The notes below the pieces were generated by a model that was not told where the DNA came from, searched no databases, and saw only the letters and a program-made list of their open reading frames with translations. DNA of 30,186 nt from Neelides folsomi (lineage: Eukaryota; Arthropoda; Collembola; Neelipleona; Neelidae): contig JAQGBZ010000574.1 in assembly GCA_034687125.1 (NCBI GenBank), forward strand, positions 1-30,186, read 5' to 3'. The position numbers and the translations under genes are program-made. Shown here piece after piece: positions 1,295 to 29,225 of the stretch (positions are counted from its first letter, which is position 1; each line of letters begins with the position of its first letter).

Positions 1295-1850
1295 AAGATA
1301 GTGCATTTCCAAATGCAAGAAGTTTGAAGAAACAAACAAACGATCGCATTCGTCATGGTGAAAAACAACATAAATGTCTGTTTAGTAGCAAATTGTTTTA
1401 CCCTAAGACAACATTTAAATAAACACATAAAAGTTCACACAAGTGAAAAGCCAATTAGTACATTTAAATGGCCAAAATCAAATGTGCTTTAATAAAAAAT
1501 ATACAACAGATCTTGCAAGAAATTCAACATTTAATTTCTCATCTTCGGTTCATTTAAAAGGTAACAAGCGTCAATTTGTTTCCAATATAAATAAATTTTC
1601 TCTAGTAATTCGAACAATCAATTCTGAGAATTTCATTAAAAATGAATCTGTAGAACATTTTAAAACACAACTGACATATAAAGTCACATTGTAAGTAAAA
1701 GTAACGTATTACATGTATAAATAATTATAAATATAAATGGTATCAATTCATTTTTTCTTAATTATTTTCATTTTCAGAAATTCCAAAGTTTATGATAAAT
1801 GCCAAGATTTATTAATTGGTCCTTCAACTTGATGAGCTTAAGAGAGTAAA
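1295..1850 (+). pseudogene. Relic of a C2H2 zinc-finger gene
   Basis: Several short stretches keep the spacing of C2H2 fingers but in shifting frames. Around 1312-1355 a frame reads C-I-S-K-C-K-K-F with a basic stretch behind it. At 1357-1395 a linker-like HGEKQHKC is followed by a finger start where the second cysteine has become serine (C-L-F-S-S-K-L-F). In another frame at 1390-1450, F-x5-L-x2-H-x3-H runs into VHTSEKP, a good match to the HTGEKP linker. Downstream, 1443..1694 is open but lacks cysteines. A GTAAGT donor at 1692 and an acceptor (TTTTCATTTTCAG, ending at 1778) suggest an intron survives, so this looks like a decayed genomic gene or duplicate rather than a processed copy. Boundaries are approximate. 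Confidence 0.5.
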
Positions 1851-2030
1851 TTCAAGACCGAATGTAATTGTTTTGTAATTATGTTTTATTCAATAATTTA
1901 ATCTCATTAAATGTATCGTTGCATTTAAGTATGTAATTTTTTTTATATTATATCCGTTTATAATGAGTTTACAAAAATAAAAATAGCTCAATGGGGATCA
2001 GTTTAGCTAGCATTGTTTTGTAGTCCAACT

Positions 2031-2786
2031 TTATTTTGCATATTGGAATGATGGAGCAGAATGAGATCTGGTCAAAACTTGGTTACTGTAAGATTGAAGT
2101 GGAGCAATTTGAACTGATGGACGAGCGATTTGGAAAGTTGGAGTCGAGTGGACGTAAGAAGTTGCATAAGTTTGTGGAGCTGAATAAACTTGAACTTGCG
2201 GAGCTTGGTGAACAATTTGAGCTTGGTGGACAATTTGAGGTTGATGGACAATTTGTGCTTGGTGGACAATTTGAGGTTGATGGTGGACAATCGGAGCAGA
2301 ATGGACAATTGGTGCCTGGTGGACAATTTGTGCTTGGTGGTGGACGATTGGAGCTGATCTCACAATTGGCGTTGAGTAAACATGTCGTGGAGCGTAAACT
2401 TGAGGAGCTGAATGGACAATTTGAGCCGTTTGATAAACCGGTGCTGAATGGACAACGGGGGCAGAGTGAACAACTTGGGTTGAGTGGTGAAGGACTGGAG
2501 CTGAATGATGGACCACTGGAGCGGATTGGAAAACTGGAACCGAGTGATGGACAATTGGAGCAGAATGGACAATAGGTGTAGAGTGGTGGACGACCGGAGC
2601 CGAGTGGTGAACAACAGGGGTGGAATAAACATGACGAGGAGCGTAGACTTGAGGAGATGACAAGAAACTTGATCCTTGAGAATAAGTAGTTGGGTAAGAG
2701 CTGTAGGAACCGAAATTTCCTTGGCTCAACAAACTTCCTCCGAAGACGCCATTCACGGCAAGACAGAGAACAATGAAGATCTTCAT
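2031..2786 (-). CDS. Low-complexity cuticular protein (His/Val/Ala/Pro repeats), 251 aa
   Basis: A structural protein of the exoskeleton, secreted by epidermal cells. The start MKIFIVLCLAVNGVFGG is a typical cuticle-protein signal peptide, cut around residue 16. The mature part is built from short repeats of the types VVHHSAP, IVHSAP and IVHQAQ, with YAPRHVYSTP appearing twice. This resembles the proline- and alanine-rich low-complexity cuticle proteins (cuticle protein 16.5 and larval/pupal rigid cuticle protein type). There is no Rebers-Riddiford chitin-binding consensus. The frame is a single exon. The last sense codon and the stop lie in AAAATAAAG, so the stop is inside an AATAAA; another AATAAA (minus) lies near 1883-1888. 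Several long frames overlap the gene on both strands, caused by the repeat composition. The class is clear; the subfamily name is uncertain. Confidence 0.82.
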   Translation of the reverse strand: MKIFIVLCLAVNGVFGGSLLSQGNFGSYSSYPTTYSQGSSFLSSPQVYAPRHVYSTPVVHHSAPVVHHSTPIVHSAPIVHHSVPVFQSAPVVHHSAPVLHHSTQVVHSAPVVHSAPVYQTAQIVHSAPQVYAPRHVYSTPIVRSAPIVHHQAQIVHQAPIVHSAPIVHHQPQIVHQAQIVHQPQIVHQAQIVHQAPQVQVYSAPQTYATSYVHSTPTFQIARPSVQIAPLQSYSNQVLTRSHSAPSFQYAK

Positions 2787-3004
2787 GGTTCTTGAAAATT
2801 AAAAAAATTATGAAAGAGGTTAATTATAATTACTTTTCTAATGAAATATGTAAATTATAGTATGAAAAATTATAATTATTTTAATAATAAGTAATTTTTT
2901 TGGAAATTAGTGTGAAATTATTTACAGTTTGTCGTGTTTTGAAAGGATGATGAAATGAGAGAAGAGGAATTGGTTGAATTGATATCCTTTAGGGAATTGG
3001 GACG

Positions 3005-3022
3005 TTTATTTATATGGATTTC
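3005..3022 (-). promoter_or_regulatory. Candidate TATA box of the cuticular protein gene
   Basis: On the minus strand CATATAAATAAACG lies about 225 bases upstream of the ATG. An initiator-like TCAATTC follows about 30 bases downstream. A 5'UTR intron is possible: a donor-like CTGTAAATAA near 2930 and an acceptor-like TTTTCAAG just before AACCATG. Confidence 0.35.
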
Positions 3023-4560
3023 TATCTTGTTCACCTTAAGTTTAACATTTGGATTTAAGTTACCTAATTTCAATGTCTCTTTTATTAAGAGCTCTGGTTA
3101 ATCGTAAAAATTGTTAGAGGACATTTAATATAACAATTAGTTGAATCTGAAGATTGAAGCGGTGAATTGTTTTATTTGTATTACTTTGAAGTTTTAATTC
3201 ACTCCATCCTGCTTACGCATTACGATTAGTTGGATCAATGAAATGACATCCAAAAATGTACAGATTCATTGGCAGCCTCCCAATGCCTAAGATAAGAATT
3301 CTTTTACCAAGATTTGGTATTTCCATAAGACAGATGCAAATGCAACTACTTTTTTAATTTGTCATTCTCACTTGTCGTTGCCATTGCCATTGCCATTTCA
3401 TTGGATTTTGTTCTTTTTTTATTAATTCATTGTAATTGAATAAAAATATAGAAGTAAAAACTTGATCAAATTCTTCATTTTTATTTTTATAATCAAAAAT
3501 GGTTTATTTTAATTTAATTTACTCATTTATTTAAACAAAATTGACTTTTCCTTATAGTACAAAATTAACAAATGTTAGTGATGGTAACATTAAAAAATAT
3601 TTTCTAAAAAGTCTAAAATCCATACTAATATTATGTCGATGATATGTATGACTGTATGGGTAAAAGCATAGTAGGTATACATATTTTATTGTCGGTAGAT
3701 CAAAGTGGTGAGAATTCAACAATGAAAAATTTTATTGCAAGGTTGTGCATAGTGAGAAGTGGAGTAATTGATGCAAACTTGTTTCAATTTACAAATCAAT
3801 TTACTACTTTGTTAATGCAAACAATCAACAAAATTTACTATTTTTAATTAATATCCAATGCCTAAATGTAATTCACCTTCTTAAACTTGGTCTGTTTATC
3901 TTCAATGAAATCTCCCTTCTTAACTAATACATTTAAACAGTTGTATAAGAAATCATCTTAGCAATTAGATAATAGACAAATAGACACATGGTATATTCGT
4001 ATAGTAAAAGGGTTAGTTATGATACAAAAATGCAAAAAATTATACGTATTTATGTACACAAATATTCGTAAAATTGTGTACAAGTATCATATTACATTAC
4101 ATAAATACCTTGTTATATAAATATTATATTATGTATTATCATAAATACTTTTTTAAAATTACATAAATTTATATTAATCATCATTTATTTGTAATAAAGT
4201 TTAGTAAAATAGTTTTAAATAGATAAATGTTTATTTTTTTATTTAAAATTTTTCTCAATTAAAATCTATCAGAAAGCTTAGAAAATATTAAATAGGTTGA
4301 TAAACCTTTGAAACATTCCGTGTAAATTTCTTGAAATTTGCTTTTATGCAAATACAAAAACACCAATTTAGTTAAATACCTTAAGTATTTCGTATAATAC
4401 AAATTTTTAAATTACTTTCATAATCACAGTTAACTATCATTGCCACAAGAAAAATTCAATAAAGCTACAAATAAACATATTTTATAATAGGAAGATAAAC
4501 CATAATTACATATTTATTTTGATTAATCCATTTGGGATATTAAAATATTTAATTATTTTA
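3023..4560. other. Intergenic stretch without a recognised gene
   Basis: AT-rich. It holds a short run of three TTGCCA units near 3378-3400. A plus-strand frame at 3644..3847 codes for nothing recognisable and is not called. Confidence 0.4.
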
Positions 4561-10944: not shown

Positions 10945-12561
10945 AGGATAAACCTATATTTATATCACCACACCTCCAAACTGCTAAATTGGACGAACTA
11001 GTTTACTAAAAACCGAACCTACTCAGTAGGAAGTAAAAAAAAGTCAAATATTAAGACCCACAAAGTTTGAAAGACATAAATATATTGTAAAATTTTTAAA
11101 TTCACAAAATTTCAGAATTACAATTTCCCTTTATTATATCACCACAAAACTTTTTCCTCTCATCTTCCGCTTTTGCTTACTAAATTAAGGTTGGTAATTA
11201 AAATTTTAATTGTTTTAAGCTATAAATTTATTGTAAATATTATTTAAAATGAAAAGTCATTTCATCACTTTAATTAAACATTTAGTGACAATGGCCAGAA
11301 GACGACTTTTAACTCAATTTGAAATGGGACAAATTGTTGCATTGCATGAAAATGGGCATTCTTATCGCTTTATTGCAAGGGCTTTAGGAAGAAATCATTT
11401 CAACGATCGTCAAGTTTATCCAACGAAGACAAAATGCCTTGCCTGGGCCCAGAAGAGAAAGACGTGGAAGACCAAAGAAAGTAGCTCAACTGAACAAACA
11501 CATTAGGAGACTTGCGAGCGATTCTAAAATATCCATTGCCCAAATTAAATCGCAATTAAATTTGGATTTAGGAAGAGAAACAATTAGGAGGGTGTTGAAG
11601 ACGCCTCCGTACATTAAATTTAAGAAAATGGCAATCCGCCCTCCATTGAAACCGTGCCATATAGCACGAAGATTGTCATGGGCCGAAGGGAAAATTTGGT
11701 GGATGAACCAGTGACGAAAACGAGTATGGTGAGATGAAAAAAAGTGGAATCTTGATGGCCCCGATGAATTTCGAGGCTACTGGCACGATATAAGAAAAGA
11801 GAATTCTCAAAAAGACATTAAGGTTGAGGATCCTTTATGGTTGGGGTGTCATTTTCTATTCGGGGAAGTCAATTCTCGCGTTTACTGCTCCCAAACTTGA
11901 TGCGGAGGAGTACCAATATCAACTAGGGGAACATTTATTGCCATTTTGGCATGAACTCGACCATTCTCCAAGCGACCGACCAACGAGATGGAGATTTGTT
12001 CAAGACGGAGCCCGTCCCCACAGTGCAGCGTCCATTTTAGAGTGGCTTGCTGAGAACAATATTCCCCTAATGGAGCATCCGGCTGTCTCGCCTGATTTAA
12101 ACCCCATAGAAAATTTATGGGCCATAATGGTAAGGCAAGTTTACGCAAATGGTAAACAATATGAAGACTTACCAAGCCTTTGGGCCGCCGTTTTAGACGT
12201 CTGGAATGGAATCTCAATTGAGACGCTTCAAACGCTTGTCAATTCTATGCATCGCCGTGTATTTCAATTATTTCTGAATAAGGGAGGCCATTTTAATATT
12301 TAAAACCACTTTTGTTATCAAAATTTCTTAAATGACTTATTAATTGACCAAATTAAAAAGGGATGATATAATTTATGGTAACCTTTCATCCCTTTCACCT
12401 TGATTTTTGACCCACGTTTAATTAAAAAGTTCACATTTAAATAAAATCTTTTGGATATCTCATTTTTTTGCTCAATTAAACATAAAACTTTAATGGTTAT
12501 GAAATTGACTTACTAGTTTTTGCAATTTGAGCAAGTGGTGATATAAATATAGGCGTATCTA
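10945..12561 (+). mobile_element. Tc1/mariner-superfamily transposon (DD34E), degenerate, 1617 bases
   Basis: The terminal inverted repeats are 10945-10971 and 12535-12561, which share CCTATATTTATATCACCAC exactly and differ at a few outer bases; weaker similarity extends inward. TA duplications flank the element at 10943-10944 and 12562-12563. The left arm of the surrounding fold-back keeps the same sequence without the element (around 10157-10175), which confirms both the boundaries and a TA target. The element carries one defective transposase gene. Confidence 0.9.
11291..12303 (+). pseudogene. Tc1/Tc3-like transposase, disrupted
   Basis: The start MARRRLLTQFEMGQIVALHE begins the first helix-turn-helix. 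A frameshift between about 11395 and 11440 moves to the next frame, which carries a GRP-type basic motif (RRERRGRPKK) and the second DNA-binding domain (ISIAQIKSQL, RETIRRVLKT). A stop at 11712-11714 and another just before DEKKWNLDGPDEF (the first catalytic Asp) break the catalytic core. A further one-base slip near 11840 leads to the last frame (11824..12303). There QDGARPHSA holds the second Asp and NPIENLW the Glu, with 34 residues between them (DD34E, Tc1 type). At least four lesions make it inactive. The family is secure. Confidence 0.9.
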
Positions 12562-22789: not shown

Positions 22790-24228
22790 TTACTTGGTAT
22801 TTAACATAGCATGGTTATATGCCGCAAGTGCATCTATAGCTCCATAACCAACATGAAAACTTGGATAAACGTTATCCGTTTTCCCACAGTTTCTCCCTTT
22901 GCCAACGTTGCCATAGCCGTATCTTGTAAAATAAATCGTACTTGTTCATTATTCAAATTCTTCTTAATTTTAGTTTTTAGCAACAAAACCGTCCCAGCAA
23001 CGTGCAGCCATGGAAGTTCCAGATCTGAAAGTATATCGATTCGAACCAACATTCTCAGCTGACCTTATTGACTCTCCCGGAGCGGCAATATCAGGTTTTT
23101 GACCTCCATTATGTGGCGGCCCTCTTGAACTGCTATCTGACACAATTAATTGACCCAAATCTGTAAAATTCAAATTTGCCACTATGATAGGCAAAGGCAA
23201 ATCTCTCGGTGTCGAGATTTTCCCACAACCATCTGCCTCTTTATTCCCAGCAGTAAAGACAATAATTATTTTTGCTATGTCTATGGCTCGGAAAATATCA
23301 TTGAAACTTGTGTCGCTACTGTCTGATAATAAACCCCAGCTGTTGTTAACCACATCGAGTCTTTTGGATGGATCACAATTTTTGAAATTTCCGCCGCGAG
23401 TGTAAGGACAGTAAACCTATTCTAAACATGTCTTGGATTCGGATTCAAACGCTTCGTTTTTAAATGGGATGTTCCGACAAGGAATCCATTTTGAATCTGG
23501 CGCCACTCCGATCCCATTCTTTCCAACGATAGTTTCTGTGACATGAGTGCCATGGCCATTTTGATCAATTGGCCACGCACTATTTATTAAAAATGGATCC
23601 AACCAACTGTAAAGACCCCCACGGTAATTTTCTCTTAAGTCTTAATGTTTCCCACTCACACCTGTGTCTATACTTGCAAAAACCATCCCTGCACCTTTTG
23701 TTTTAGGCCAAACCTGGTCAGCTTTAATGGCTTTAATTCCCCATTCAGTTTGTCCTTCAAACTGCCTTTCTCCGATTGTTTTAAATCCTCACGGTTGTTG
23801 TTCAATTGGTCTGTCCAAATAAATAACTTTTTCTTGTCGAATTGATGAAACTTCCTTGAATTGGCTTATTGACTGAATTAGTATAGAATTTGTATTTTTA
23901 ATATAAATTTCGCTGGTTGTTGGAAAAGATCTGTAAGGATATTTGGTTGATGGAGCGTAAGAATTCAGGAATTCAGAAGTTTTGTAACGCCTTCTTGGGA
24001 TTGGAATGAATTAGAACATAATACAGAATTCAAAGCTGAAATTATTTCTTCGTCGTTTTTTGAATTCTTTACTTTCAATGTAGTCGTAAACTGATGAGGA
24101 ACCGCCATCAAAGATATTTTTCCTTGTATTCGAGATTTCTTAACGAAGATTTCACATTTTTCTTCATTTGGGAACGCTATTGATAATGTTAATTTTCACC
24201 AAAAGAATAAAATTTGTAAAATCATCAT
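22790..24228 (-). pseudogene. Subtilisin-like serine protease (peptidase S8, bacillopeptidase F / fungal-type), intronless and dead
   Basis: Read on the minus strand from ATG at 24228, a signal peptide (MMILQILFFW, stop, KLTLSIAFP) leads to a propeptide-like region. The S8 body follows: FASIDTGV with the catalytic Asp (codon near 23666), NGHGTHV with the His (23552-23554), RLDVVNNSWG, FTAGNKEADGCG with the oxyanion Asn, and SGTSMAA with the Ser (23012-23014). The C-terminal HVAGTVLLL continues in another frame, then HVGYGAIDALAAYNHAM and TAA at 22790-22792. Lesions: TGA at 24196-24198, frameshift near 23970, TGA 23789-23791, TAA 23642-23644, TAG 23417-23419 (apparently TGG to TAG), a probable 5-base deletion right after GTSMAA (near 23003), and a frameshift near 22885. 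No intron is needed. Length about 480 codons. It faces the esterase tail to tail, 150 bases away. It is unlike the furin/PC or TPP2 types normal in animals. Confidence 0.87.
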
Positions 24229-24784: not shown

Positions 24785-24975
24785 TCCATATGGGGGTTCT
24801 CCTATATTATTATATTTTTTTATATATATTCTCCTATATGAGAACGTTCCTATGAATTCCCATATATGCGTTCCCAATTCCCACCAGCGTTCGCGGGACC
24901 ATATTATATCTGGCATAGGAACGTTGCCGGGTATTGGGAACGTTTCCGGGAACGATCCTGGGAGCAATCCCAAAG
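24785..24975. repeat. GC-richer inserted segment with CGTTCC inverted repeats
   Basis: A stretch visibly richer in G and C than its surroundings, with repeated GAACGTTCC, GCGTTCCCAATTCCC and, inverted, GGGTATTGGGAACG and GGGAACG. The two halves form an imperfect hairpin (about 24869-24894 with 24917-24943). The duplicated block downstream lacks it, so it is probably a small mobile insertion. Open frames here are short and unrecognised. Confidence 0.5.
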
Positions 24976-24989
24976 CGAGGCATTCTTAT

Positions 24990-25600
24990 GCATAGGTAAT
25001 TACAAGTAGAGTTGTAGAGGGACGATTTTCTGAAAGTGGGGGTTAAATAAACATATTAAACTGCGAAGTAATGTTACGTAAAATGTTTACATTAATTTAA
25101 TGTTTAGAACTTTTTAGAACACGAAATAATTCAAAAAATTAATTTATTTTAGAATCGATATCCTAACTAAGTATAATAAATAAATAATTATTATCGATGT
25201 ATAATCCCATAAATATAATCCTACTATATTATACAATAGTTTGGCAGGTTTTCTGCTCAATAAGTTTACATTGTCTGCAGATAGGTCTTTTAATGTAAAT
25301 ATCGGGAGTCGGGTCTGGTGTATGTCGGGTCGTCGGGAATTTTAAATGGCTTTTTTAAATCATCAATTTAAAATTTATTTTAGCATTATGAATAGGTAGT
25401 AATTTTTATTAAATTTAAAGGAAATAAAAGATACAGCCCTCGGATTTAATAAGTTATCTTTAAATGCTGATTTATTTTGATTTAAATAGAACTATTTACT
25501 ATAGAATTTAATTAAGCAAAATGTTTAAAATAATATGTTTTATTATTATAATCATAGACCTTTCAAAATCAATCAAAATAAGTCCGATTGGTCAATTTGA
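24990..25600. repeat. Duplicated block, part 2, copy A (IR upstream region and first codons)
   Basis: Matches 28300-28866 in direct orientation, for example TTTTTAGAACACGAAATAAT, GGTTTTCTGCTCAATAAGTTT and the first codons of the IR. A trace of the GACC-type repeat (GGGAGTCGGGTCTGG, near 25304) is present in this copy only. Confidence 0.8.
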
Positions 25601-27499
25601 TTTACCTGACACAAGCAATTGCCATATTGAATTATTCAAATGGTTCCCTTTTGACATTTACGAAGATATGCCAAGACTTCTTAATTTAAACTATAACATC
25701 ATTACTTTTCGTCAATTGTATTATTTGGGAAAAAATGGAAATACAACTCAATTATTCTATACTTCAGGATACGCTAAATTTGTATATAGTGATAGAATCA
25801 ATTTTTACCATACAAAATTTAATACTTGTTTTAGAATTCATTCAATAAATCCGTGCTGGACGGACTTTTACAATTGGTTAGAAATTTCAAGGAGATTAAA
25901 ATTCAAGCCAAGTTATTATTTTATATTTGTCGATAAAATAAATTATTATATTAATTGCGATAAGTTACAACCAATATATCAAGGTTATGGTTTTGGATAT
26001 TTAAACCCTTTTGATAAAATAGATGTAAAAATATTTTTCCTTCTGAATACTTACAAACTAATAAGTATTTACTGTGACGAATGGAATAATAATAAATTTA
26101 TACCAATGGAATTACTAAACGATATGAATAAGTTAAATGATTTTTATAACTTATTTTTAAAAACTGTAAAGATATATCCAAGACTAGCGAGTCAATCCTC
26201 GTATTATCAGAATCTACTTTATAACCCTTATTGTTCCAAACCAAGATTTTATTCGTATTTGAAGTGTACGTCAGCAATTTTTTTATTCGTTTACTCTCTG
26301 AAATAACAAATTTAACAATACGTATCCCAAATTATAATTTTGATAATTTTAATGTTTATCCAGATCTGAATGACGTGTGGACTGAATTTGGTCAAAGTAT
26401 ACAACATTTATCAATTAAATACCATCTCATCTATTGTCATAAAAACAAAGAACTTGAATCCTATAATTGGCATATATTATCCGATGCATACGATTTACTA
26501 ACTTGGATTATTTTAATTTTATTGTTTGTTTCCATGATTATTGTTAATACAATAAAAACTAAGTTTGATAATGTAATTGAAGTAGTTAGCACAAATTGCT
26601 ATGATTTGATAAGGCTAATTCTTCGTACTGGAGGAATAAAAGATGAAAATTTTTCCAAATTAGTGTGTGTTTGGGCTTTCGGTTTGTTAATTTTTAGCTT
26701 TTTTTATGAAGCAATAATAACTTTAAATTTAACTGTTCCATTAATGCCCACAGAGGTGAACAACATAAGCGAGTTATTCGAGAGAGGTTATCGTCTATTG
26801 GATGTTCATCCATATGGAACTGCTACTATTGTTGAATCCCGAACAAATTATGGAAAATTTGTTTCTAAATCATGTAAATTGGTTAATTTTACAGATTGTT
26901 TTACCCCCTTTATAAAAATTTACAACATAAACGAAAATCAAGTGATCAATTCCTACATGGGATACTTAATATATAAAGCAAACCCTCCGCCAATGCTATT
27001 TGTAAAACCATTTGTAAGAATATATATACTATTCTCTAATAAGGTCTTCATTGTGCGAAAAATAAGAAAAAAATGTATTTTTTCAAATAAAATTACTTAT
27101 GACGCACCTTCTAGTTGGAAATTTTTTGGGCCTTATTCCAATCGGTTTTATTATATTTTTAATTCGCTATTTAATTCAGGAATTATTAAATTTATTTACA
27201 ATAATGAAAATGACGAAAATAGACTTAGAGTAGGTATGCGAAATGATTTACGAAGATCTAAAAGTAAATCTATTTTCAGTTCTAACGAAAAACAAATAAA
27301 AATGACAAACAATTTGGAATCGATAAGAGTTAAAATTTACGGAGAAATCAATAAAAGGGACGAAGAAAGACCTGTGAAATTGCAATCCCATGTCACATTT
27401 GCTTTTGAATTAATGATCTTTTTACAATTCTTTGGATTTATCTTTTTGATTTGTGAAATTTTGAAATTACATTTTAAACAGACCAAAGTTAAAAAATAA
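25521..27499 (+). pseudogene. Ionotropic receptor (divergent IR-like), single exon, one frameshift
   Basis: The first frame (25521 to at most 26306) starts with a short signal peptide (MFKIICFIIIIIDLSKSI) and gives the N-terminal part with scattered cysteines. The second frame, open from 26225 to 27499, gives the rest of lobe S1, M1 at about 26486-26560 (LLTWIILILLFVSMIIVNTI), the pore-region linker, M2 at 26661-26735 (LLIFSFFYEAIITLNLTVPL), lobe S2 (SELFERGYRLLDVHPYGTAT) and M3 at about 27393-27465 (FELMIFLQFFGFIFLICEIL). The T7 run near 26278-26284 is the likeliest slip site. Joined length would be about 655-660 residues. It may be a young pseudogene or a sequencing indel. The TAA stop at 27497-27499 sits inside AATAAA (27495-27500). 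The receptor type is clear from the layout; sequence motifs are weak, as in divergent IRs. Confidence 0.72.
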
Positions 27500-27982: not shown

Positions 27983-28802
27983 GAAATGAGTTTTCCTTTG
28001 AAATTTAAAAAAAATTGTTGCGATAAATATTTTCAAACAATAAATATAAATATTATCATTGTCAATTTGAAGGTTCTAGTTCAATTACATAAATGTATCC
28101 GTTTATGTACAGATAGTAGTAATCAGACATCTGTAACACATCTTTTTTGAAATTGTTATAAATAACTGCTCATGGTCTAATGGTCTATAATTAAGTTTGT
28201 AGGTCAAGCCTATACTTGGAGTGCTTTTAATTCAACAGTAAATTATAGGTATTATACAAATTGTATTTGTGTTATGTAAACAAACATACATACTACTTAT
28301 GCATTATTACAAGTATGTATAGTGATGATTTTCTGAAAGGGGTGGAGTTAAATAAATACATTAAACTCAGATGTAATGTCATGTAAAATATTAACATTAA
28401 TTTAATTTCAAGTACTTTTTAGAACACGAAATAATTCAAATAATTAATTAATTTTAAAATCGATAGTACATATAATAAATAATTATCAATGTATAATCCT
28501 ACATATTATTGATAGCATATTACCATAATTGTATATGCAGTTGTGTAGGTTTTCTGCTCAATAAGTTTATATTTGCAAAATATAATTACTTACTATCTTA
28601 ATCTTCTAAGTTTTAATTTTAAATGGCTATTTTCTTAATCAAGAACATTTTAAAATTTATTTTGTCAATATGAGTAGTAATTTTTATTGAATTTAAAAAA
28701 TAAAAGATATAAATTTCGAATTTAATCCATAATCTTTAAATGTAAAAGCTGATTTATTTTTATTTAATTAAAGCTATTTAGTGGAGAATTTAATCAAGTA
28801 AA
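27983..28802. repeat. Duplicated block, copy B (IR upstream region)
   Basis: Direct copy of 24481-25520 at about 3.3-3.5 kb spacing. Parts 27983-28073 and 28300-28802 align with clear similarity. Between them copy A has different sequence, including the GC-richer insert. Confidence 0.75.
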
Positions 28803-28866
28803 ATGTTTAAAATAATATGCTTTATAATTATAATAGACCTCAAAATCAATCAAAATAAGTCCGATT
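28803..28866 (+). pseudogene. Truncated ionotropic receptor copy (first about 20 codons)
   Basis: ATGTTTAAAATAATATG and the following bases repeat the start of the IR at 25521, up to AAAATAAGTCCGATT. This copy lacks three bases in the hydrophobic run and two more in the CTTTCAAAA part, which shifts the frame. At 28867 similarity to the receptor stops abruptly and unrelated repeat sequence begins, so the gene copy is broken. Confidence 0.75.
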
Positions 28867-28934
28867 ATGTATGTGAAGTTAGCGCACCGCACTTTTTTCC
28901 CTATCCTAATATATGGGTTTTTCCATCTACCGGA

Positions 28935-29225
28935 AGTAGGGCTTCCTCACCGATTTCGTACATCCCACTTGGCAGTCATCTTAAGAAGAGTGTTCTGAAC
29001 AACATATTCAAATCCCAGCTCATAATACTCCGAGGAACGATCTTTGTTTTTGAAAACCCCGAACACTCCTATACCTAAAGAATTAGTATTTAGAAATTCG
29101 GGGTTTTCGGTCTTCTTCACCGCTTTGGAACATGGCGCTTGGCAGGCATCTTGGGTAAGCCATTCTAAACAACATATCCAAATACCATCTCAGAATTCTC
29201 TGAGGAAACATGTCATTGTTCTTGT
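28935..29225. repeat. Two diverged copies of a roughly 110-130-base unit
   Basis: Unit 1 (about 28940-29052) and unit 2 (about 29116-29225) share, in order, TTCACCGMTTTSKWACAT-like sequence, CTTGGCAGKCATCTT, TTCTRAACAACATAT and CTCMGAGGAAC/ACAT. Base composition is higher in GC than the flanks. They lie exactly at the breakpoint of the truncated IR copy. No protein family recognised in either strand. Confidence 0.6.

What the first reader, a model, noticed from the sequence alone, without database searches (positions are those of the whole stretch)
22790..24228. Dead, intronless subtilisin-family protease in an insect gene cluster: possible horizontal acquisition
Seen: all S8 catalytic motifs (DTGV, GHGTHV, GTSMAA), no introns while neighbouring genes have 6-13 exons, a signal peptide, and about seven lesions. 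Known: animal S8 proteases are usually furin/PC, S1P or TPP2, which have different motif contexts; this one reads like secreted bacillopeptidase F or fungal extracellular subtilases. Inference: transfer from a microbe (or an old lineage-specific family), followed by decay. A functional relative may persist elsewhere in the genome.
Basis: partly seen in the sequence, partly recalled or inferred. Interest (0 to 1): 0.75.

Follow-up and report, generated by a model that had tools for sequence, protein, structure and literature searches.

The report
Dead copy of springtail subtilase family
The window holds a decayed copy of a secreted protein-cutting enzyme gene whose intact sister genes lie elsewhere in the same springtail genome, in a family shared with oomycetes and bacteria that probably passed between distant organisms long ago.

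Summary
Minus strand 22790-24228 carries a subtilisin-type (S8) protease gene broken by three in-frame stops and at least four frame changes. Three corrections. (1) The host is a springtail (Collembola), not an insect: of the 36 named COI hits above the first beetle, 34 bear springtail names and two wider labels. (2) The copy is not alone: I count 20 loci of this family in the assembly: 12 full-length single ORFs, one open to a contig end, one with introns, and six broken or interrupted, this one included. Intact pairs show dN well below dS. Two intact ORFs lack catalytic residues. (3) Relatives in other springtails are already named "Bacillopeptidase F". Transfer is supported within the rows sampled: springtail and oomycete members form one group (100/99), and trees separating them are rejected (AU p 0.0016-0.0075), the groups having been named after the first trees were seen. 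Donor and direction are unresolved. Other eukaryotes were visible only through lists of the 120 best hits. A new member of a known kind (springtail genes of foreign origin); moderate interest.

The parts
22790..24228 (-). Pseudogene of a secreted S8 (subtilisin-type) proprotease; start codon 24226-24228, terminal stop 22790-22792
23003..23695 (-). Remains of the catalytic domain: Asp motif (DTGV), His motif (GHGTHV), NNSWG, Ser motif (GTSMAA) in one frame
   Evidence: PF00082 match; translation; tblastn
22973..23416 (-). Longest open piece (148 aa), second half of the catalytic domain including the Ser motif
   Evidence: 55.6 bits to PF00082
23792..24195 (-). Remains of the N-terminal prodomain, spread over two frames
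   Evidence: prodomain fold inferred from the model of a springtail relative
23417..23419 (-). in-frame stop codon
   Evidence: 3 of 3 paralogue alignments
23642..23644 (-). in-frame stop codon
   Evidence: 3 of 3
23789..23791 (-). in-frame stop codon
   Evidence: 3 of 3; in two of them placed in an insert

Best explanation
The feature is a pseudogene in a large springtail family of secreted S8 proproteases ('bacillopeptidase F-like'). Shown: the broken frame; 19 further loci in the same assembly, 12 of them full-length single ORFs; dN below dS in intact pairs; relatives in other springtails; a grouping of springtail and oomycete members apart from the bacteria sampled. Inferred: an ancestor of springtails and an oomycete lineage share the gene through horizontal transfer (oomycete to springtail, or both from a bacterium-derived source). 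In springtails it duplicated and diverged, with occasional deaths, including this copy. Intact members should work as secreted zymogens: the signal peptide is removed, the prodomain helps folding and then blocks the Asp-His-Ser protease, self-cleavage releases it, and it digests proteins outside the cell, perhaps in the gut of a detritus and microbe feeder. The window copy itself makes no working enzyme.
For: Family and fold: (best solved matches of the modelled springtail relative P0133 are pro-subtilisins such as ProN-Tk-SP). Paralogues. Selection: (dN/dS 0.32 for C660b/C760, 0.24 for C725a/C725b, 0.23 for C76/C725b, 0.20 for C76/C725a; the C247 pair, touched by gene conversion, 0.60). Host. 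Relatives. Phylogeny: springtail side, 28 rows with 7 metagenome rows, 99/86; with oomycetes 100/99; AU p 0.0075, 0.0016, 0.0016 against separating them. Seat in animal DNA: EcKL, carboxylesterase and a DDE_3 transposase in the window; tubulin beside C76 and a dystroglycan-type glycosyltransferase beside C687; an intron in C92.
Against: Animals and protists below the 120 best hits were not seen (120 of 4959 and 120 of 1433 hits listed), so a wider patchy distribution is not excluded. In the 33-row tree oomycetes fall among springtails, weakly (50/83 and 53/76). In the 81-row tree the branch that parts springtails from oomycetes plus bacteria has 91/92, not starred, and that tree carries long-branch warnings. 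Own copies are not one clade. The AU groups were named after trees had been seen. One Daphnia magna record sits inside the oomycetes. Beside C43 the neighbouring frame had no Pfam match, and beside C315 only a ligand-gated channel match under the cut-off. The gut role rests on fold and secretion only; no expression data.
Confidence: 0.78

Rival explanations
1. Vertical inheritance: an ancient eukaryotic S8 subfamily kept in springtails and oomycetes and lost in most other lineages.
For: Springtail members are old and diverse, and only the 120 best of 4959 and of 1433 hits could be seen.
Against: Of the listed hits that bear an organism name (32 of 120, 33 of 120) all are oomycetes (26, 20), springtails (5, 12), one bacterium or one Daphnia record. 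Springtail and oomycete members join apart from the 28 rows labelled bacterial, which under vertical descent needs loss in many other eukaryotes.
Confidence: 0.12
2. Contamination: the window or the family comes from oomycete or bacterial DNA in the sample.
For: Coding GC of intact copies (0.39-0.55) exceeds that of their flanks (0.24-0.33).
Against: The copy sits among arthropod-type genes in one contig, two others lie beside tubulin and a dystroglycan-type glycosyltransferase, one has an intron, and springtail genome records hold relatives on contigs up to megabases long.
Confidence: 0.03
3. The broken copy is still used, for example as a regulatory RNA or through a short peptide.
For: A 148-aa open piece remains, and two other members are intact ORFs without a full catalytic set.
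Against: Three stops and at least four frame changes; stops separate the Asp and His parts from the Ser part. A conserved short frame or RNA was not sought.
Confidence: 0.04

Closest known systems
'Bacillopeptidase F' and related proteins of springtails (Orchesella cincta, O. dallaii, Folsomia candida, Allacma fusca)
   Same: Prodomain plus S8 layout; 39-48% identity to the own copy C247b for the 12 springtail hits; same side of the tree
   Different: No orthologue of the window copy was identified; lengths vary (417-713 aa); their gene structure was not seen
Oomycete secreted subtilisins (Globisporangium, Pythium, Aphanomyces)
   Same: 38-40% identity over 94% of the own copy C76 for the six best named ones; same layout and, by eye, the Cys-rich segment after the His motif
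   Different: Many are longer (up to 784 aa); separate from the springtail side in the tree
Bacterial S8 proteins of Actinobacteria, Chloroflexi and others
   Same: S8 domain with a related N-terminal part; the Anaerolineales protein P0036 is 36-39% identical to the three springtail proteins aligned with it
   Different: 19 of the 26 examined lie in stop-to-stop frames of 918-1139 aa; outside the springtail-oomycete group
Bacillus-type bacillopeptidases and subtilisins
   Same: Catalytic motifs and fold
   Different: Far from the springtail genes in the tree, where they were set as outgroup; the shared name is an annotation label
Furin/PC-type proprotein convertases of animals
   Same: S8 superfamily
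   Different: Found apart in this genome in separate pieces: C108 and C214 pieces match furin best among solved structures; C45 looks like a convertase by eye; C82 was not identified

Membership tests
Peptidase_S8 (PF00082, subtilases) | Match over the curated cut-off | tested here: met
   90.9 bits (cut-off 21.8) for the window copy; 8 of 9 intact own proteins scanned pass, the ninth (C43) has no Pfam match
Peptidase_S8 (PF00082, subtilases) | Asp, His, Ser catalytic residues and the oxyanion Asn | tested here: met
   Window: the three motifs are readable. Intact copies: 10 of 12 have D/H/N/S; C196 has F for His, C43 has A/Q/V/A
Peptidase_S8 (PF00082, subtilases) | Open reading frame giving a working protein | tested here: not met
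   Three stops, at least four frame changes: the copy is a pseudogene
Springtail 'bacillopeptidase F-like' family | Groups with the own intact copies and other springtails | tested here: met
   Piece 22973-23416 groups with C660b, C760 and C660a, 99/81, on a long end branch of 2.87; those copies lie on the springtail side
Bacillopeptidase F of Bacillus | Groups with Bacillus sequences | tested here: not met
   Bacillus, Heyndrickxia and Cytobacillus rows, set as outgroup, are parted from the springtail rows by branches of 100/98 and 100/100
Proprotein convertases (furin/PC) | Best match to furin/kexin | tested here: not met
   The 60 solved-structure matches shown for C76 are subtilisins and related microbial proteases; furin-type pieces lie elsewhere in the genome
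Horizontally acquired gene | Tree conflicts with organism phylogeny and separating trees are rejected | tested here: met
   within the rows sampled; groups named after trees were seen
Horizontally acquired gene | Identified donor and direction | tested here: inconclusive
   Springtails plus Pythium-type rows as a clade p 0.55; plus Aphanomyces p 0.31
Digestive protease | Expression in gut, activity | not testable with these tools
   No expression data

The most novel reading that the evidence does not exclude
The transfer ran from springtails to oomycetes: an animal-evolved branch of these proteases was taken up by soil oomycetes. For it: in the 33-row tree oomycetes fall inside the springtail sequences (weak, 50/83 and 53/76). 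Against it: in the 74-row tree the springtail side holds together with 99/86 while the oomycete base is unresolved (oomycetes one side in 60% of bootstrap trees).
Probability: 0.12. Interest if true: 0.75.

Novelty: new member of a known kind. Interest (0 to 1): 0.42.

Why it matters
Springtails are known for many genes of foreign origin: the abstract and passages of the Folsomia genome paper (PMC5490193) that I saw report 809, many for lignocellulose breakdown. This case adds a large, diversifying protease family shared with oomycetes, with duplication, death, gene conversion and loss of catalytic residues visible in one genome. It makes the donor question testable with more springtail and oomycete genomes.

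Tried and rejected
My first guess of a strepsipteran host (small AT-rich genome) was rejected by COI. A length test on 18S rRNA did not complete. NCBIfam listed only matches below each family's cut-off for the five proteins tried. A retrocopy origin of the window copy is not needed, since most relatives here are single ORFs. Raised GC as a sign of foreign DNA was set aside: all 12 intact copies are richer in GC than their flanks. The Daphnia magna relative P0208 was set aside as possible oomycete contamination because it nests between Globisporangium rows; not proved.

Rows and tests left out: the 74-row tree left out, from the 81 rows, the window piece, C43, C429, partial C173, Allacma, Daphnia, some Folsomia, Orchesella and oomycete rows, P0066, P0088 and 13 metagenome rows. 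C92 was in no tree. 26 of the 80 bacterial loci were used, plus P0036 and P0018. The label 'bac' for P0018, P0066 and P0088 is my guess (no organism shown), and the organisms behind P0042 and P0055 (EukProt) were not shown. Not finished: on 74 rows, oomycetes plus the four nearby rows and the own ten as one clade; on 33 rows, springtails alone. The C82 piece of the S8 search was not identified.

Papers: listings only for searches; passages of PMC5490193, PMC12693562, PMC13389597, PMC6275457 and one passage of PMC5736985, its title line (63). One search found none of six protease terms in PMC5490193. 'Bacillopeptidase' with 'Collembola' gave 0 papers; 'subtilase' with 'Collembola' gave 1, on mites; 'subtilisin-like' with 'Folsomia candida' gave 1, which by title and start of abstract concerns prohormone convertases. 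The Orchesella cincta genome paper was not held.

Full report
What is there. The minus strand of the window between 22790 and 24228 carries a subtilisin-type (S8) protease gene that no longer reads through. Three frames were translated: one holds the Asp motif, the His motif, the NNSWG segment and the Ser motif, interrupted by stops. The Pfam S8 model finds it in the whole assembly at 90.9 bits, cut-off 21.8, with two stops inside. A frame-aware alignment to three paralogues (C760, C660b, C660a) gives identities of 229/442, 222/449 and 210/435, and each time the same three in-frame stops and four frame changes, plus further lesions at the N-terminus where the three alignments disagree. Three stops in about 470 codons, with 4.35% of single changes giving a stop (measured on the 148-codon piece), would mean about 0.05 changes per site since decay began: a rough estimate of mine, that of an old paralogue that died fairly recently. 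Synonymous divergence from the six paralogues compared is 1.78 to saturation, so no recent parent copy was seen.

The host. The window is one whole contig (C574) of a 75.1 Mb assembly in 840 contigs. The assembly's COI gene (read with code 5) was searched: the best hit is an unnamed metagenome protein (93%); the next 36, all named and 79-82% identical, precede the first beetle record, and 34 of them bear springtail names (genus names placed by my own knowledge) and two the wider labels Metazoa, with a Folsomia representative, and Hexapoda. The animal is a springtail, not an insect in the strict sense.

A family with intact members. Searches of the same assembly with the Pfam model, a piece of C76 and the whole of C247b and reading of the fetched stretches give 20 loci. 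Twelve are full-length single ORFs of 456-565 aa (C76, C725 twice, C660 twice, C760, C332, C247 twice, C196, C429, C43). C173 is open to the contig end. C92 has an intron with GT-AG ends that splits the codon of the catalytic Asp and, by eye, a second one; I did not read it to its end. Six are broken or interrupted: the window copy, the second C760 copy, C315, C413, C564 and C687; only the window copy was examined lesion by lesion, and some of the others could have introns instead. The tool calls such counts lower bounds. Pairs of intact copies show dN well under dS (0.204/0.631, 0.258/1.090, 0.285/1.223, 0.300/1.497); the C247 pair gives 0.332/0.550 but shares a converted block; most other pairs are saturated. 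Ten of twelve keep all four catalytic residues; C196 has Phe for the catalytic His, and C43 has lost all four in a 464-aa frame, which makes it a candidate pseudoenzyme.

Relatives elsewhere. The search with C76 listed 120 of 4959 hits: 32 carry an organism name by my count, 26 oomycetes (best 40% over 94%), 5 springtails (Folsomia, Allacma) and one Anaerolineales bacterium. The search with C247b listed 120 of 1433: 33 named, 12 springtails (Orchesella dallaii, O. cincta, Folsomia; best 48%), 20 oomycetes and one Daphnia magna record. In both searches only the roughly 8000 candidates sharing most words were scored.

Origin. In a 74-row tree rooted on Bacillus-type sequences the springtail sequences, ten own ones and seven metagenome rows included, form one side with 99/86; they join the oomycetes with 100/99; the joined group lies among bacteria, next to an Anaerolineales protein, an unnamed one (P0018) and two EukProt sequences. 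Own copies are not one clade there. Holding springtails together with those four and apart from oomycetes is rejected (p-AU 0.0075). On a 33-row set both ways of parting springtails from oomycetes are rejected (0.0016 and 0.0016). These groups were named after trees had been seen, which weakens the p values. Springtails joined to Pythium-type or to Aphanomyces-type oomycetes are not rejected (0.55, 0.31), and in that smaller tree oomycetes fall inside springtails with weak support (50/83, 53/76). An 81-row tree, drawn on its midpoint and with long-branch warnings, parts springtails from oomycetes plus bacteria with 91/92, not starred; the Daphnia record sits there beside Globisporangium rows and may be contamination. 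So springtails and oomycetes appear to share this gene by some transfer, but donor and direction stay open. The usual animal S8 genes are a separate matter: pieces of C108 and C214 match furin best among solved structures, and C45 looks like a convertase spread over many short open pieces (by eye).

How it works. A model of the springtail relative P0133 on an alignment of 39 sequences reaches mean pLDDT 89.5 and pTM 0.90, below 50 only in residues 1-18. Its best solved matches over the whole length are pro-subtilisins with their propeptide, first ProN-Tk-SP 3afg. From this and from established knowledge of subtilisins I infer secretion, prodomain-assisted folding, self-cleavage and protein digestion outside the cell. 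A gut role is a guess that fits feeding on detritus and microbes. The window copy cannot do this.

Standing. Springtails with many acquired genes are known: the abstract and passages of PMC5490193 that I saw report 809 in Folsomia, and the terms subtilisin, bacillopeptidase, peptidase, subtilase, protease and oomycete do not occur in its main text. Leptotrombidium mites are reported to have subtilases absent from other mite genomes and 40-50% identical to fungal and bacterial ones (passage of PMC6275457), a possible parallel. I found no paper on this springtail family in the searches; the Orchesella cincta genome paper was not held.

Noticed in passing
L025 (G000:C43) 1746-3137 minus: Intact 464-aa member of the family with all four catalytic positions changed (A, Q, V, A); no Pfam match. 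Candidate pseudoenzyme.
   Followed up: partly
L014 (G000:C196) 1398-2777 plus: Intact member with Phe in place of the catalytic His only.
   Followed up: partly
L029 3177-4574 minus and L011 1128-2495 plus (G000:C247): Two paralogues about 19 kb apart on opposite strands share a 265-base identical block of 56% GC within a 536-base stretch 94% identical, while the rest is far more divergent: probable gene conversion.
   Followed up: partly
window 11237-12303 plus: Remains of a Tc1/mariner-type transposase, spread over more than one frame; only the last piece was scanned and matches DDE_3.
   Followed up: no
window 25512-27499 and 28794-29078 plus: Ionotropic-receptor-like gene (by eye; no Pfam match) and, downstream, a near-copy of its first residues.
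   Followed up: no
window 24840-24990: Short stretch of GGAACG/CGTTCC-like motifs in both orientations, by eye richer in GC than its surroundings.
   Followed up: no
protein P0208 (Daphnia magna): Named a site-1 protease-like Daphnia protein but nests between Globisporangium rows: possibly oomycete contamination in a Daphnia record.
   Followed up: partly
L028 (G000:C429) 2824-4518 minus: Family member with a long Thr-rich linker between prodomain and protease domain; a similar linker, by eye, in the interrupted copy on L016 (C413).
   Followed up: no
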